Below are positions 2,718-29,988 of a stretch of 34,054 nucleotides of DNA, piece by piece (positions within the stretch are counted from its first letter, which is position 1; each line of letters opens with the position of its first letter). Source of the stretch: an uncultured Lachnospiraceae bacterium (lineage in GTDB: Bacteria > Bacillota > Clostridia > Lachnospirales > Lachnospiraceae). The notes under the pieces were generated by a model, which saw only the letters and a list, made by a program, of their open reading frames with translations, was not told where the DNA came from and did not search any database. The stretch covers positions 1-34,054 of the forward strand of contig CANDKY010000036.1 of NCBI GenBank assembly GCA_947385425.1, in the 5' to 3' direction. A program made the position numbers and the translations under genes.

Positions 2718-2849
2718 ATGGATTGTATTTTAACTGAGCAGCCAGCCTGTATAGAAATAATGATGGGCATGGCGTTATATGTGGTGAAAGGGGATAAGGC
2801 TGTCCATTATGATTCCACCAAGGAGCAGGAGGGACATAATGCCGGATAG
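2718..2849 (+). CDS. Small hypothetical protein (43 aa)
   Basis: A short frame starting at ATG 2718, with GGAGG 7 bases upstream, and ending at TAG 2849. It overlaps the start of the methyltransferase gene by 11 bases, as is usual in coupled phage genes. The product begins MDCILTEQPACIEIMMGM and has no recognised motif. Support is the ribosome site, the overlap with the next gene, and filling an otherwise empty gap. Confidence 0.45.
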   Translation: MDCILTEQPACIEIMMGMALYVVKGDKAVHYDSTKEQEGHNAG

Positions 2850-3651
2850 CGTTATCATGGCTCATGGTTTTCAAGAAGATGCAGAAGGAAATGAAAAAAC
2901 ATTAGTTCCTTCTGGATTATTTCTTATGGATGGAATTGAGGGTTTGCGTTCGCTTCCTAAATATTCGGTGGATATGCTTCTGGCAGATCCTCCATACGGC
3001 ACGACATGCAATGATTGGGATGTGCGTTTGCCGCTCCCAGAATTGTGGGAAGCAGTGCGTTGGGCTGTCAAGCCGAATGGGGCGGTGCTATTTTTTGCCC
3101 AATGCCCCTATGATAAGATACTTGGGGCTTCTAACTTGAAGATGCTCCGTTATGAGTGGGTATGGATAAAAAACCGCGCAACGAGTTTCCTTAATGCGAA
3201 CCGTGCACCGCTGAAAAAAACAGAGAATATTTTGGTTTTTTATCAAAAATTGCCTAATTACCAGCCACAATTTACTTTTGGAAAGCCTTACCAGAAAAGA
3301 CGTTCACATGGTAGCAATAGTTCCAATTATGGGAAATATGTGAATATAATGTCCGGATCTAGCGATGGGAGGCGTTATCCGGGAAATGTGCTGGAATTTA
3401 AGGTTGTTACCCATAATATCCACCCAACACAAAAGCCAGTGGAACTATGTGAGTATCTTATTATGACATATACCCGGCCGGGCGAGGTGGTGGCAGATAT
3501 CTGTGCAGGTTCTGGGACAACAGCTATTGCAGCCCTTAATACTGGGCGAAAATATATTTGTTTTGAAACATTGCCTTCTTTTGTAAGTTTGGCTGCAGAG
3601 AGGATAAAATGTGCACAGGAGGTTATAGCTGCAGGCGGGAAGGGGGTGTGA
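2839..3651 (+). CDS. DNA methyltransferase, beta-type (N6-adenine or N4-cytosine)
   Basis: A 270-residue S-adenosylmethionine-dependent DNA methyltransferase. The catalytic motif DPPY is at residues 50-53, inside LLADPPYGTTCNDWD. A HPTQKP motif follows near residue 195, and the cofactor motif appears near the C-terminus as DICAGSGTT at 220-228. The order catalytic motif before cofactor motif defines the beta class. No restriction enzyme gene is next to it, so it is likely an orphan phage methyltransferase that hides phage DNA from host restriction. ATG 2839 is preferred over the upstream in-frame ATG 2809 because GGAGG is 6-7 bases before it. Confidence 0.88.
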   Translation: MPDSVIMAHGFQEDAEGNEKTLVPSGLFLMDGIEGLRSLPKYSVDMLLADPPYGTTCNDWDVRLPLPELWEAVRWAVKPNGAVLFFAQCPYDKILGASNLKMLRYEWVWIKNRATSFLNANRAPLKKTENILVFYQKLPNYQPQFTFGKPYQKRRSHGSNSSNYGKYVNIMSGSSDGRRYPGNVLEFKVVTHNIHPTQKPVELCEYLIMTYTRPGEVVADICAGSGTTAIAALNTGRKYICFETLPSFVSLAAERIKCAQEVIAAGGKGV

Positions 3652-4230
3652 GTTTATCGGTAAATATAATGTGATATACGCAGACCCGCCTTGGCGGTAT
3701 AACCGAAAGGATGTTAAAGGAGCGGCAGAAAGCCACTACCCTACGATGGATATAGACGCATTAATCTCATTGCCTGTGGCTGATTTGGCCGCTCCGGATT
3801 GTGTTCTTTTTATGTGGGCTACATTCCCACAGATGCCAACGGCCATACTGTTAATCAAGGAGTGGGGATTTCAATATAAATCTGTAGGTTTTGTTTGGCT
3901 AAAGAAGAATCGTAAAGCAGATAGCTGGTTTAAGGGTTGGGGTTTTGGACACGGGGCAATGCAGAAGTGTGCCTGCTGGCAACACGGGGGCATCCACGAA
4001 GGCAGGCTGCTAATGTCCATCAATTCATTATTTCACCTATTGAGGAACATAGCAAAAAGCCAGATGAGGCCCGAAGCAAAATTGTTGCATTGATGGGGGA
4101 TGTTCCCAGGGTAGAGTTATTTGCGCGCCAGAGTACACCTGGTTGGGATGTATGGGGAAATGAAGTGGAATGTACTGTTGATAATTTTGGATTCCGTTTT
4201 TCTACATTTCAGACAGAAGGAAAATTATAA
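3629..4230 (+). pseudogene. MT-A70 family adenine methyltransferase, frame disrupted
   Basis: The first part carries the family signature YADPPWRYN (the DPPW catalytic motif) and runs to KKNRKADSWFKG. It then loses frame near 3937-3946, and the -1 frame continues naturally with FWTRGNAEVCLLATRG, IISPIEEHSKKPDEARSKI, MGDVPRVELFARQ and GWDVWGNEV. The two parts together cover a whole protein of about 190-200 residues. Either one T was lost at 3937-3938 or ribosomes slip at GGGTTTT (3940-3946). The start is also odd: the first usable GTG (3671) has no ribosome site and cuts off the conserved KYN before VIYADPPW, whereas CTG 3629 has AGGAGG 6 bases upstream. Left unfixed, the first frame ends at 4093. 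Confidence 0.8.
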
Positions 4231-7960: not shown

Positions 7961-8911
7961 ATGGCAATCCTGATGCTGCCCGCAAAAAGGGTAAAAAAAG
8001 CAAGGACGTATAACGGCGCGGAAGTGCTTAAGCGCCTGCAGTCGTTCCTGGATAATAATACGGAAAATTTAGTACAGATACTGTGCGGTTTCTGGCAGGA
8101 TCAGCAGTACGCCATAAGCTACCAAGAACTTCGGGAGGCAGTGAAGCAGGGATACCTTGACGAGGCTGTTTTCCAGCAGTGGTCGCAGGACTATGCCCAT
8201 CTGGTGGCCACGGAGATAAGCAGGGCATGGATGGATGCCATAGTGGCAGGGCCATCGGGGCAGCCGGTACTGGACGGCTCTCCGTTTGTGTATGATACGC
8301 AGACACCTGGCATTTTAAGCTGGATCAGCGAACATGGGGCAGAATTTGTTACGTCTGTTACCCAGGATCAGAAAGACGCCATAGCAGCCCTGCTGGTGAA
8401 AAGGATGAAAGACGGGCATACTGTGGATGAGCTGTCCAGGCTTATCCGTCCATGTATCGGATTAACGGAAGGGCAGACAAAGGCAACAGCAAATTATTAT
8501 GACAGCATCGTGGAAAACCTGAAAAAAGAGCATCCGCGGATGAAGCAGGAAAGCATCCGGAAAAAAGCACAGGATGCGGCGCTGAAGTATGCGGAGAAGC
8601 AGCACAGGTACCGGGCGCTGACGATTGCACAGACAGAACTGGCTTTTGCTTATAACCGTGGGGCGGATGAGAGCGTCCGGCAGGCACAGGCGCAGGGGCT
8701 GATGGGCGAGTTGCGGAAGCGGTGGTGCTCTTCCGGCGATATGTCGGTATGTGATATGTGTGATGCGCTGGACGGTACGGAAATAGGCATGGACGAAGAG
8801 TTTGGCTTCAAAGGAAGAGTACTTTTCCGTGGGCATAAGCTGCTCCCGCCGGCCCATCCGAGGTGTGCATGCGCAGTTGAATACATAGAAGTCAGCCCGC
8901 CGGAATTTTAA
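7961..8911 (+). CDS. Phage head morphogenesis protein, Mu gpF/SPP1 gp7-like
   Basis: A 316-residue minor head protein. The C-terminal 110 residues carry the Mu F signature: ALTIAQTELAFAYNRG, then RWCSSGDMSVCDMCDALDGT with two cysteine pairs, and LLPPAHPRCACAVEY at the end, a probable metal-binding His/Cys cluster. Residues 90-210 are helical. Proteins of this group sit inside the head near the portal and help assembly or DNA entry. The start ATG 7961 is 4 bases after the portal stop. In PBSX-like phages this gene lies next to the portal, as here. Confidence 0.88.
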   Translation: MAILMLPAKRVKKARTYNGAEVLKRLQSFLDNNTENLVQILCGFWQDQQYAISYQELREAVKQGYLDEAVFQQWSQDYAHLVATEISRAWMDAIVAGPSGQPVLDGSPFVYDTQTPGILSWISEHGAEFVTSVTQDQKDAIAALLVKRMKDGHTVDELSRLIRPCIGLTEGQTKATANYYDSIVENLKKEHPRMKQESIRKKAQDAALKYAEKQHRYRALTIAQTELAFAYNRGADESVRQAQAQGLMGELRKRWCSSGDMSVCDMCDALDGTEIGMDEEFGFKGRVLFRGHKLLPPAHPRCACAVEYIEVSPPEF

Positions 8912-27565: not shown

Positions 27566-27591
27566 GGATATAAAGACAGGGAGGGGTGGAT

Positions 27592-28422
27592 ATGCCGCAA
27601 CTTTTTAACAATGCCGTGATTACGGATGGCGGCGCGGCGCTCTTAGCCATGGCACAGGCGGGGCAGGCCAAAGTAAAGTTTACGCGCATGGCAGTGGGGG
27701 ACGGGGTTTATGCCGCAGCGGAAAAGGATATGCGGTTTCTGCAGGCTGCAACCAGGCTTAAGGCGGAAAGGAACAGTTACCATTTGTCCGGGATTGAGGT
27801 TGTTTCCGGCCACAGCGTAAAGCTGACGGCGCTCATCACAAACCAGGATCCGGCCACATCAGCCACGCTGATAGATGCCGGGTACTATATCAATGAGCTG
27901 GGCATCTTTGCAAAGCCGGATGTGGCGGGCGGGCAGGAGGTGCTTTACAGCATAGCGGTTACGGCCGGGGACCATGGGGATTATATGCCGCCGTATAACG
28001 GGTACCATCCGGCGCAGATCATACAGGACTATTATGTGACGGTGGACAATTCTGCTGAGGCTGTTATCCAGGCGGGGACGGGTGCGGTGGCGCTGGCTGA
28101 GGATCTACAAGTGCTTAAGGAGCAAGTTGAACAGCACGCGGCCGGAAATGATCGGGAATTTGCACGGATATGGGGATTCCTGGGGGATTTGTACTGCCTG
28201 GCAGTGGAGATGGATATTGATAATATCATTGGGGGAACATATGTGGATGATGATACCACGGGAGGGGGATTTTTTGAAGTCGGTACAGATGGGGATATAG
28301 ATGCTATTATTAATGGAAGTTATGTGGGGGCAGATACAGGGACAGGCGGTGGTGGCGCCCAGGGGGGCGTGACTGGCCAGATGATAACAGAAATTGTGGA
28401 TAATGCATTCAGGGAGGTATAA
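27592..28422 (+). CDS. Tail fibre/collar protein (DUF3751-like N-terminus)
   Basis: A 276-residue protein. ATG 27592 is preferred over in-frame GTG 27586 for its distance from GGAGGGG. Residues 1-150 are the phage tail-collar fibre domain, with NAVITDGGAALLAMAQAGQAK, FTRMAVGDGVY and GYYINELGIFAKPD. The C-terminal part carries two imperfect DIDxII units (DIDNIIGGTYV and DIDAIINGSYV) with DDTTGG and DTGTGG loops, then TEIVDNAFREV. It probably attaches the later fibre proteins to the baseplate. The DIDNII motif occurs again at the end of the next gene. Confidence 0.82.
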   Translation: MPQLFNNAVITDGGAALLAMAQAGQAKVKFTRMAVGDGVYAAAEKDMRFLQAATRLKAERNSYHLSGIEVVSGHSVKLTALITNQDPATSATLIDAGYYINELGIFAKPDVAGGQEVLYSIAVTAGDHGDYMPPYNGYHPAQIIQDYYVTVDNSAEAVIQAGTGAVALAEDLQVLKEQVEQHAAGNDREFARIWGFLGDLYCLAVEMDIDNIIGGTYVDDDTTGGGFFEVGTDGDIDAIINGSYVGADTGTGGGGAQGGVTGQMITEIVDNAFREV

Positions 28423-28425
28423 TTT

Positions 28426-28737
28426 ATGACAAACATAACAAAGGAATTGCTGGCGGATTTTGCAGGGAAATTTGCGAACAAGGTGGCAGACATTTTTGCA
28501 AAGAAGACGGATATCCCGAAATCGCTTCCGGCTGACGGAGGGGATGCTGAGACGGTGAACGGGCATACGGTGGATGAGAATGTGCCTGAAGGAGCCAAAT
28601 TTATGGATACGACATACCAGGATGCAACTGCAAGCGTGGCTGGCCTTATGAGCGCGACAGATAAAGAAAAGCTGGACGGCATGACGGAGGCAACGGAAAC
28701 GGATATAGATAATATCATTGCAAACCTTTTTAAATAG
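28426..28737 (+). CDS. Short tail-fibre-associated protein
   Basis: A 103-residue protein starting at ATG 28426, 4 bases after the fibre stop, with GGGAGG upstream. It contains LPADGGDAETVNGHTVDENVP and ASVAGLMSATDKEKLDGMTE, motifs common in phage fibre shafts, and ends with ETDIDNIIANLFK. This last motif repeats at the DNA level a 19-bp stretch of the previous gene with one mismatch, so the two fibre genes probably exchanged or duplicated sequence. It may be a shaft segment or adapter. Confidence 0.72.
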   Translation: MTNITKELLADFAGKFANKVADIFAKKTDIPKSLPADGGDAETVNGHTVDENVPEGAKFMDTTYQDATASVAGLMSATDKEKLDGMTEATETDIDNIIANLFK

Positions 28738-28751
28738 TCTGGAGGTGCAGG

Positions 28752-29225
28752 ATGAAACTTGTAACAACGAATTTATTGAACCGGTTTTGGAAGAATGGTG
28801 TGAAACCGATTTTGACATCACTCGGAAATAAAATTGAAACATCAAAGATAGTAAATAATATGATGACAACAGTTGCAGGGTATGTTCTTGATGCACGGGT
28901 AGGAAAAACATTACATGATAAAGATGTCGAATTGGAGAATGCAGTTAATGAGATAAACAGCAATTTAGGCGGATTTTCCGTAAAAAGTGCTATGGGCGCT
29001 GAAATCCGGGATGCCAATGCCGCTGAGATGGGAATTTATCATATTGGAGAACGGATGCCAAACTCGGCTTTTACCTTTTGGTCAACCATTATCGCTACAT
29101 CATTTCGAGGCGGATGGATCCAACAAATAGCGTTGCCATGGTCAGCCGGTGAAAAGAAAATTGCATACCGGGTTAAAAATTCTGATGGCTGGCAAAGCTG
29201 GCATTATATTAATTTTGATAATTAA
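28752..29225 (+). CDS. Tail fibre protein with invertible C-terminus, current orientation
   Basis: A 157-residue protein, ATG 28752 after GGAGG. Residues 1-66 are a constant part with a helical section (KPILTSLGNKIETSKIV). At codon 67 the reading enters the 19-bp repeat 28950-28968, coding EINSNL. The following 85 residues resemble a pyocin-knob type tail-fibre tip: GIYHIGERMPNS, TFWSTIIATSFRGGWIQQIALP and VKNSDGWQSWHYINFDN. The stop at 29223-29225 is 5 bases from the stop of the opposite-strand cassette. The repeat at the domain border makes the C-terminus swappable by inversion. Role in receptor binding is inferred from fold and position. Confidence 0.85.
   Translation: MKLVTTNLLNRFWKNGVKPILTSLGNKIETSKIVNNMMTTVAGYVLDARVGKTLHDKDVELENAVNEINSNLGGFSVKSAMGAEIRDANAAEMGIYHIGERMPNSAFTFWSTIIATSFRGGWIQQIALPWSAGEKKIAYRVKNSDGWQSWHYINFDN
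28950..28968 (+). repeat. Left inverted repeat of fibre inversion segment
   Basis: GAGATAAACAGCAATTTAG, identical to the reverse complement of 29521-29539. A further CAGTT.A. outside it also matches apart from two bases (28942-28949 region). Sequence similarity stops abruptly on the inner side, so this is the probable crossover region. Confidence 0.85.
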
Positions 29226-29230
29226 TTATT

Positions 29231-29539
29231 TTAGGCAGCTACAAAAGAGTCAGATAACCTCAGTATTTCGGTGGTAGCGGCTCCGCCAAAGTAAACCTCA
29301 AACTTCCCGTTTGTATTGATTCGGTACCACCCATTCGCGTTAAAACCAATAATCCCGCCATGGATTGTTGCAGATGGACGGTATCCCGTGGGTAGCGTGG
29401 CTATTGTCTGCCATGTGCCGACTTTTGCGGCGGTGTGCTCATAATTTTTCCCGCAGGTTACGGTTACGATTTTACCCCATCTTGCATAAGTTATGATACC
29501 GTTACTTCCTGTTTTAACTTCTAAATTGCTGTTTATCTC
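29231..29539 (-). other. Silent alternative tail-fibre C-terminal cassette
   Basis: The minus strand is open for 103 codons from the repeat to TAA at 29233-29231, and has no start codon: going upstream it meets a stop at codon -8 with no ATG, GTG or TTG between. It begins EINSNL like the expressed fibre, then EVKTGSNGIITYARWGKIVT and later TLPTGYRPSATIHGGIIGFN, NGWYRINTNGKFEVYFGG and DSFVAA, typical of phage fibre distal domains. If inverted, it joins in frame to residues 1-66 of the 28752 gene, giving 168 residues. It has no promoter or ribosome site of its own. Confidence 0.82.
29521..29539 (-). repeat. Right inverted repeat of fibre inversion segment
   Basis: Read on the minus strand it is GAGATAAACAGCAATTTAG, the exact copy of the left arm. 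The two arms define a 590-bp segment (28950-29539). Confidence 0.85.
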
Positions 29540-29551
29540 TTCAACTGATGG

Positions 29552-29576
29552 AAGACCCTTGTGGTCTTATTTTTTT
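29552..29576 (+). terminator. Terminator outside the invertible segment
   Basis: A 6-bp stem AAGACC (29552-29557) with GGTCTT (29563-29568), a 5-base loop and a run of seven T after one A. It lies just outside the right repeat, so the fibre message ends here in both orientations. Confidence 0.7.
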
Positions 29577-29595: not shown

Positions 29596-29988
29596 ATGGA
29601 TCATGACAAATTAGTTTTAAGAGATGGGACAGAAATCATACTTGAATCATCCCAGGGAATTGGAACATTGCATGTTACCGTAGAAAGCAAAAGTGCAGCT
29701 TGCGCTTTATGGGAAGGTTTTACAAAGGATAATCTGTCAGTAGTAACAGTAAAAAATTCGGCGGGCGAGACTACAGGAGTTTATAAGGATATGGTTCTTG
29801 ACCATATCACAGGAACTGAAAACCAAGATGGCATGGTGAAGATCATGTTCAGCCTACGTGAGAGAACGGCGCAGGAAATTTTAGAGGAAAGAATTGCAGC
29901 TCTGGAGGAAGGACAACAGATACAGGATGCTGGGATTGGTGATTTAGGGCAGGCAATATCTGACATGATGGAAGGAGGAGTGCAGTAA
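29596..29988 (+). CDS. Hypothetical phage protein downstream of fibre
   Basis: A 130-residue protein starting at ATG 29596 with AAAGGAGG upstream. Residues 1-90 are beta-rich (LVLRDGTEIILESSQGIGTLHV and GVYKDMVLDHITG); residues 90-125 form a helix likely to be a coiled coil (AQEILEERIAALEEGQQIQDAGI). It is found next to XkdX-like genes in gut clostridial prophages as far as I recall; its role may be baseplate or fibre assembly. The stop overlaps the next start in TAATG. Confidence 0.68.
   Translation: MDHDKLVLRDGTEIILESSQGIGTLHVTVESKSAACALWEGFTKDNLSVVTVKNSAGETTGVYKDMVLDHITGTENQDGMVKIMFSLRERTAQEILEERIAALEEGQQIQDAGIGDLGQAISDMMEGGVQ

What the first reader, a model, noticed from the sequence alone, without database searches (positions are those of the whole stretch)
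28950..29539. Invertible tail-fibre tip: a minimal host-range switch
Seen: 19-bp perfect inverted repeats bound a 590-bp segment holding two fibre C-termini tail to tail, 5 bases between their stops. Both start at the same codon phase (EINSNL). The minus cassette is fully open but has no start codon, so it can only be used after inversion, where it joins residues 1-66 of the 28752 gene without a frame break. Known: phage Mu and P1 switch fibres with invertible G and C segments. Inference: this phage does the same, in a stripped form with no fibre chaperone in the segment and a small 157- or 168-residue fibre.
Basis: partly seen in the sequence, partly recalled or inferred. Interest (0 to 1): 0.88.

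Follow-up and report, generated by a model that had tools for sequence, protein, structure and literature searches.

The report
Two-tip tail-fibre switch lacking its recombinase
A prophage of a gut-type bacterium carries two alternative ends for its tail fibre between matching flip sites, but the flipping enzyme that its relatives carry inside the same cassette is missing here, so the switch is probably locked unless something else in the cell supplies the enzyme.

Summary
The inversion reading is supported, but Mu/P1 is not the nearest model. In relatives the same anatomy is a shufflon with a Xer-like tyrosine recombinase, typically ordered site+ site- [recombinase] site+ site-, close in design to the Rin shufflon of bifidophages (PMC6109161). 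The closest relative, L061, has the window's site core and an intact recombinase. The window keeps both outer boundaries of such an array but lacks the recombinase and two tips, as one recombination between two direct sites would leave it. No recombinase of this family was found in the window's genome, so the switch is most likely locked or dependent on an enzyme in trans. Other recombinase-less two-tip phages carry the site types of two other recombinase groups (L003, L170, L171; L021), and L170/L171 hold homologous tips in opposite orientations. No reads were available: flipping of this copy is unproven. New variant of a known kind.

The parts
28752..29225 (+). switched fibre gene in its present form (157 aa); residues 1-66 constant
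   Evidence: N-terminus 77% identical to L061. No Pfam, NCBIfam or PHROG hit
28950..28968 (+). recombination site 1 (19 bp, codes EINSNL; core GATAAACAGCAATTTA 28952-28967)
28969..29225 (+). tip A, in use
29231..29539 (-). tip B, silent, open, no usable start
29521..29539 (-). recombination site 2, exact copy of site 1 inverted; matches the outermost site of L020
29552..29576 (+). terminator-like hairpin and T run just outside the array
   Evidence: consensus match only
29596..29988 (+). next gene downstream of the array, function unknown
   Evidence: alignment with the L020 flank
28426..28737 (+). small protein before the fibre gene, 86% identical in L061
27586..28422 (+). tail-fibre protein (phrog_7037, Pfam Phage_tail_fib)

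Best explanation
This is the two-tip derivative of a phage tail-fibre shufflon found in Lachnospiraceae-type phages. The full form has four sites in the order + - [Xer-like tyrosine recombinase] + - and four alternative tips. The enzyme exchanges strands at a short site whose codons (INSNL here) form the joint between fibre shaft and tip, so inversion swaps tips in frame. Because sites 1 and 3, and sites 2 and 4, are direct repeats, one recombination between them would remove the recombinase with two tips and leave [site, tip, reversed tip, site], which is the window's layout. Shown: anatomy, open frames, matching outer boundaries, the same site core as enzyme-bearing relatives, no recombinase of the family found in this genome. 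Inferred: the deletion; tyrosine-recombinase chemistry at this site; that the tips bind receptors; and that the switch is now locked or works only when a matching enzyme is supplied in trans.
For: Same anatomy and both orientations in frame in L003, L006, L009, L018. L061, the closest relative, has the identical 16-nt site core three times around an intact recombinase. 15 phage arrays with a recombinase, eight showing all four sites in the order + - REC + -. Recombinase orientation differs between arrays, 10 with the fibre and 4 against, as flipping of its segment predicts. Window homology to L061 ends at site 1 and to L020 begins at its outermost site; hairpin outside the site in window, L020, L021 and L003. 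Recombinase-less two-tip loci with the site types of the other two recombinase groups. L065: recombinase broken by an internal deletion, array kept. L170/L171: homologous tips (52%, E 2e-36) in opposite orientation on 90% identical backbones.
Against: No reads, so no direct view of inversion or deletion. The L170/L171 tips (dS 1.64) are much more diverged than the preceding gene (dS 0.41), so exchange of tips between phages can explain them, and the L170 site pair is imperfect (20 of 22). L018 shows a recombinase with only two sites found, which one site-by-site deletion does not explain. The direction of change (loss rather than gain of the recombinase module) is not shown. The genome is a 198-contig draft, 97% complete, and the prophage's left arm is not on this contig, so the enzyme may be in a gap.
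Confidence: 0.7

Rival explanations
1. The switch is live: a matching tyrosine recombinase acts in trans, from a co-resident phage, a host hsdS array, or the unassembled left arm of the same prophage.
For: Both sites and both tips are intact. In G048 a recombinase-less locus (L021) and an enzyme-bearing array (L135) share the core TAAATAGTGATTTA. The window's site shape TAAA-N6-TTTA is that of most hsdS sites, 44 of 48. PMC6109161 suggests trans action for a recombinase-less phage locus (passage).
Against: No family member in the window's genome at E<=1e-60; best partial matches 30% and 35% identical. The site core occurs, with up to one mismatch, only at the window pair and one other place. 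The shared G048 core is a recurrent site type (also L141, L142), so it may be coincidence.
Confidence: 0.25
2. The two-tip, enzyme-free layout is the older state, and the recombinase with two tips was inserted later in L020, L061 and others.
For: The same single recombination run backwards; closely related backbones differ in having the enzyme (L018 against L003, L170, L171).
Against: Enzyme-free loci appear with site types matching three recombinase groups, and L065 shows outright decay of the gene. Neither excludes insertion.
Confidence: 0.15
3. A Mu/P1-type switch driven by a serine invertase.
For: The genome holds 25 serine-recombinase places.
Against: None of them is on this contig; the enzyme in relatives is a tyrosine recombinase.
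Confidence: 0.03
4. Chance repeat or assembly artefact.
For: The genome is a draft in 198 contigs.
Against: Same anatomy in independent records; 200 shuffles reach 16 bp at most, not 19.
Confidence: 0.02

Closest known systems
Rin shufflon of Bifidobacterium prophages (PMC6109161; passages read)
   Same: Constant N-terminal receptor-binding protein, alternative C-termini joined at a short repeat, Xer-like tyrosine recombinase without arm domain, tail context, gut prophages.
   Different: Rin lies at the edge of several cassettes with 11-bp sites; the arrays here place the enzyme in the middle between inverted sites of about 14-21 bp; the window has no enzyme. Sequence kinship to Rin was not tested.
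Recombinase-less inverted locus of tRNA-Met bifidophages (same paper, passage)
   Same: About 500-bp inverted tail segment, no recombinase flanking it, trans action suggested by the authors.
   Different: 8-bp site CAGGGTTA; genes without identified function; no enzyme-bearing relatives mentioned in the passage.
Gin (Mu) and Cin (P1) fibre switches (recalled; mentioned passages)
   Same: Inversion chooses the fibre C-terminus.
   Different: Serine recombinase and a larger segment (recalled); no serine recombinase found on this contig.
hsdS shufflons such as pneumococcal cod/PsrA (PMC7096588; passages)
   Same: Tyrosine recombinase inverts gene segments between short repeats; hsdS arrays in the host family use enzymes of the same wider family and often the same site shape.
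   Different: They switch DNA-methylation specificity, not phage tips. Kinship to PsrA itself was not tested.

Membership tests
Lachnospiraceae-phage fibre arrays with Xer-like recombinase (as found here) | Inverted sites at the shaft-tip joint, convergent tips in the same frame | tested here: met
Lachnospiraceae-phage fibre arrays with Xer-like recombinase (as found here) | Same site core as enzyme-bearing relatives | tested here: met
   GATAAACAGCAATTTA in window (2) and L061 (3), no mismatch
Lachnospiraceae-phage fibre arrays with Xer-like recombinase (as found here) | Recombinase inside the array | tested here: not met
   No gene between or beside the window sites; no tyrosine recombinase on the contig
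Rin shufflon | Tyrosine recombinase gene flanking the tip cassettes | tested here: not met
   met in relatives L018, L020, L061
Rin shufflon | Constant N-terminus joined in frame to alternative C-termini at a short repeat | tested here: met
Rin shufflon | Recombinase homologous to Rin | not tested
   The Rin sequence was not fetched
Gin/Cin serine-invertase fibre switch | Serine invertase gene beside the segment | tested here: not met
   25 Resolvase-family places in the genome, none on contig C36
Active invertible switch of any kind | Both orientations present in one population | not testable with these tools
   No raw reads; only one orientation in the assembly
Phage tail fibre | Switched protein belongs to a known fibre family | tested here: inconclusive
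   No hit itself; lies two genes after a tail-fibre protein; in relatives 4 of 10 array ORFs tested have a tail family as best hit

The most novel reading that the evidence does not exclude
Tail-tip shufflons of this kind amputate themselves. Their + - [recombinase] + - geometry lets the enzyme excise its own gene with two tips as a circle, leaving two-tip loci such as the window's that stay switchable only when a matching enzyme arrives in trans or the circle re-enters. The recombinase with its tips would then be a small mobile module that spreads tips between phages.
Probability: 0.3. Interest if true: 0.72.

Novelty: new variant of a known kind. Interest (0 to 1): 0.5.

Why it matters
The paper that described Rin asked how an arm-less tyrosine recombinase flips inverted sites yet avoids deletion between direct ones (PMC6109161, passage). 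Here are loci in the form such a deletion would leave, with site types matching three recombinase groups, so the question can be tested with full and reduced forms side by side. If right, it also means that annotation of one assembled orientation understates the tips a prophage can use.

Tried and rejected
Mu/P1 serine invertase: rejected, none on the contig. Chance repeat: rejected by shuffles and relatives. A flipped copy of the window phage itself: not found; scans of IMG/VR gave only distant relatives and the phage collection none. A recombinase for the window elsewhere in its genome: not found. Nine regions around the nine Phage_integrase places of the genome: no convergent-tip array was seen; L163 and L164 hold inverted repeats of 15-17 bp beside integrase-like genes, of unknown meaning. 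Terrisporobacter phage TPELB_ph1 has an 'integrase' (33.9% identical to the L061 enzyme) between tail genes and holin, but the scan showed no matching site pair around it. MT835621 and MT838471 look like hsdS arrays, judged from protein ends by recall, not by HMM. The site pattern in IMG/VR (10 stretches): four are one phage (L065, L067, L069, L070; 100% identical where compared); the other six (L062, L063, L064, L066, L068, L071) show a single exact site and are not counted as arrays. The site pattern AGATAAAYRGYRATTTA in 397 family genomes hit 10 places in 7 genomes (reversed control: 1 place): seven places lie in or at the edge of arrays (G343, G000, G048, G450), three do not clearly (G004, G288, G408). 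L170/L171 as proof of simple inversion: weakened by tip divergence and by an imperfect L170 site pair. Structure prediction: not available. A single site shape for all arrays: rejected; TAAA-N6-TTTA fits 44 of 48 hsdS sites but 21 of 56 phage sites examined.

Left out of counts: of the 63 recombinase places, 40 were fetched (G043's had been fetched as L022, and was left unclassed); 16 of the 40 were not recognised as arrays by the scans (L148 showed one site pair and was also left out). Places below E 1e-60 were not examined.

Paper searches, none of which listed a Lachnospiraceae phage array of this kind: (listings and abstract starts only). Passages were read of PMC5903667, PMC6109161 and PMC7096588; no paper was read whole. 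The library lacks most subscription journals and all bioRxiv preprints.

Full report
Observation. The repeat, the two tips, the 5-base gap between their stops and the in-frame junction are all as described. The pair is the only perfect inverted repeat of 15 bp or more with arms under 6 kb apart found in the window; 200 dinucleotide shuffles of the surrounding 3.5 kb gave at most 16 bp, and the silent frame stays open in 0.5% of 5,000 shuffles. The window is the whole contig C36 of a 4.42-Mb, 198-contig genome, 97% complete. Its neighbours make it a contractile-tailed prophage: terminase, portal, tail sheath, tape measure, baseplate wedge, with a tail-fibre protein (phrog_7037) two genes upstream. 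The switched protein itself has no Pfam, NCBIfam or PHROG hit; that it carries the fibre tip is inferred from its place and from relatives.

Relatives. With the fibre as query, the same anatomy (constant N-terminus, inverted repeat, convergent tips, both orientations in frame) appeared in L003, L006/L020, L009/L021 and L018; most of the other 15 loci of those three searches showed no such repeat. L018 and L020 also hold a Xer-like tyrosine recombinase beside the tips. A scan with the L020 enzyme found L061, the closest relative of the window phage: 86% identity in the preceding small protein, 77% in the fibre N-terminus, the site core GATAAACAGCAATTTA at three places, and an intact 329-aa recombinase between two of them.

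The family. A profile of four such recombinases hit 54 of 397 genomes of the host family at E<=1e-60, 63 places in all; the window's own genome was not among them. I fetched 40 loci around these genes; 24 were recognised as inverted-site arrays and 16 were not. Twelve of the 24 I class as phage fibre arrays and twelve as type I restriction hsdS arrays. Of the twelve hsdS loci ten were given to Pfam, and ten of ten hit Methylase_S. Of the twelve phage loci ten were given to PHROGs: four (L115, L117, L119, L126) have a 'tail' family as best hit, two more (L118, L130) have weaker tail hits, three (L120, L135, L142) hit families of unknown function only, and L116 had no hit. For those four, and for L121 and L141 which were not scanned, the class rests on layout and recombinase group. 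With L018, L020 and L061 there are 15 phage arrays that hold a recombinase. Eight show all four sites (L117-L121, L126, L130, L020); L115, L116, L061 and L135 show three, with L116 and L061 cut by contig ends; L018, L141 and L142 show two by this scan, though L141 and L142 have a variant second pair.

Geometry. The usual order is site+ site- [recombinase] site+ site-. Sites 2 and 3 are inverted around the recombinase, so its own segment should flip too. It lies in the fibre's direction in 10 arrays (L018, L020, L115, L118, L119, L120, L130, L135, L141, L142), against it in 4 (L061, L116, L117, L126), and L121 could not be judged (read). Sites 1 and 3, and 2 and 4, are direct repeats, so one recombination between them should delete the recombinase with two tips and leave a two-tip, two-site locus.

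The window fits that product. Its homology to L061 ends at site 1 (27588-28973, 75.6%), and its homology to L020 begins at the outermost site of L020 (29522-29646 to 8531-8660, 74.6%). A terminator-like hairpin (29552-29568), then the next gene, follow the outer site in the window, L020, L021 and L003. Between the outer sites only two tips remain. Other recombinase-less two-tip loci carry the site types of the other two phage recombinase groups of the tree: L003, L170 and L171 an L018-like site, L021 the L135-type site. In that tree the L018 and L135 groups are firm (100/99, 100/100), while the group of L020, L061, L115, L116 and L126 is weak (84/86) and the deepest branches are unsure, with two long branches flagged. 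The records holding L003, L170, L171 and L002 show no such recombinase elsewhere, but they may be fragments. L065 and three identical contigs show another route: the first 31 codons of the recombinase and its 3' flank remain and the middle is gone. L018 does not fit neatly: it has the enzyme but only two sites were found.

Does it still flip? Against: no family member in the window's genome; best partial matches are 30% (L018 enzyme) and 35% (L061 enzyme) identical, both in one gene of contig C30, which lies beside tilS- and lexA-like genes (those names are recalled from sequence, not from a search). The site core, with up to one mismatch, occurs in the genome only at the window pair and one 1-mismatch place. 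For: both sites and both tips are intact; in G048 a recombinase-less locus (L021) and an enzyme-bearing array (L135) share the core TAAATAGTGATTTA, though that site type recurs elsewhere. In L170 and L171, whose flanks are 90.5% and 88.8% identical, the tip in use in L171 is homologous (52%, E 2e-36) to the silent tip of L170. That is not proof of simple inversion: the tips (dS 1.64) are far more diverged than the preceding gene (dS 0.41), so tips may have been exchanged between phages; dN/dS of 0.28, with dS near saturation, suggests that tips are kept under selection. The window's silent tip is weakly similar to the tip in use in L170 (24%, E 3e-6). Several contigs of relatives end 50-230 bases past an array site (L061, L116, L121, L002, G343:C121) or at its expected place (L019), as mixed orientations would do to an assembly, but contigs break for other reasons too.

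Mechanism, marked. Shown: sites, frames, boundaries, enzyme-bearing relatives with the same site core, no such enzyme found here. Inferred: a tyrosine recombinase exchanges strands within TAAA-CAGCAA-TTTA, whose asymmetric centre sets direction; inversion exchanges receptor-binding tips; the window lost the enzyme by recombination between direct sites and is now locked or trans-dependent. Receptor binding and host-range change are inferred from the class, not tested.

Known or new. The nearest published system is the Rin shufflon of bifidophages, and the same paper reports a recombinase-less inverted phage locus with trans action suggested (PMC6109161, passages). So neither a phage tyrosine invertase nor a recombinase-less locus is new in kind. 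Not found in print by the searches (listings): central-recombinase four-site arrays in Lachnospiraceae phages, the reduced two-tip form with boundaries that fit a deletion product, and one wider recombinase family serving both phage fibres and hsdS genes. The hsdS enzymes form one clade (100/100) among them. The site shape TAAA-N6-TTTA is common to most hsdS sites (44 of 48) and to some phage arrays, the window's among them, but not to the majority of phage sites (21 of 56).

Noticed in passing
L129, L131-L134, L136-L139, L143, L145, L150: Type I restriction hsdS arrays in the host family have the same + - [recombinase] + - layout and a related recombinase as the phage fibre arrays; their sites often encode INxNL too.
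   Followed up: partly
L065 2227-2530 (also L067, L069, L070): Tail-tip array whose recombinase keeps only its first 31 codons and 3' flank: an internal deletion with the array kept.
   Followed up: partly
G048: L021 and L135: One genome holds both a recombinase-less two-tip locus and a recombinase-bearing array with the same 14-base site core, a candidate for action in trans.
   Followed up: partly
L116 end (G343:C46) and L215 end (G343:C121): Two contigs of one genome each end about 50-55 bases past a site of the same type, as if one array was split by the assembler.
   Followed up: partly
L126 5498-8235: The four tips of this array are similar to one another (45-74% identity), unlike the unrelated tips of most other arrays.
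   Followed up: no
window 2809-4093: Two neighbouring ORFs each match part of DNA methyltransferase families (phrog_67 and phrog_359); possibly one gene split or two genes.
   Followed up: no
L163 (G000:C4) 2353-2934: Several inverted copies of ATATAATATGCTTAAC lie between an integrase-like gene and an HTH-like regulator in the window's genome.
   Followed up: no
G000 whole genome: 25 places matching the Resolvase (serine recombinase) family, several in tandem groups.
   Followed up: no
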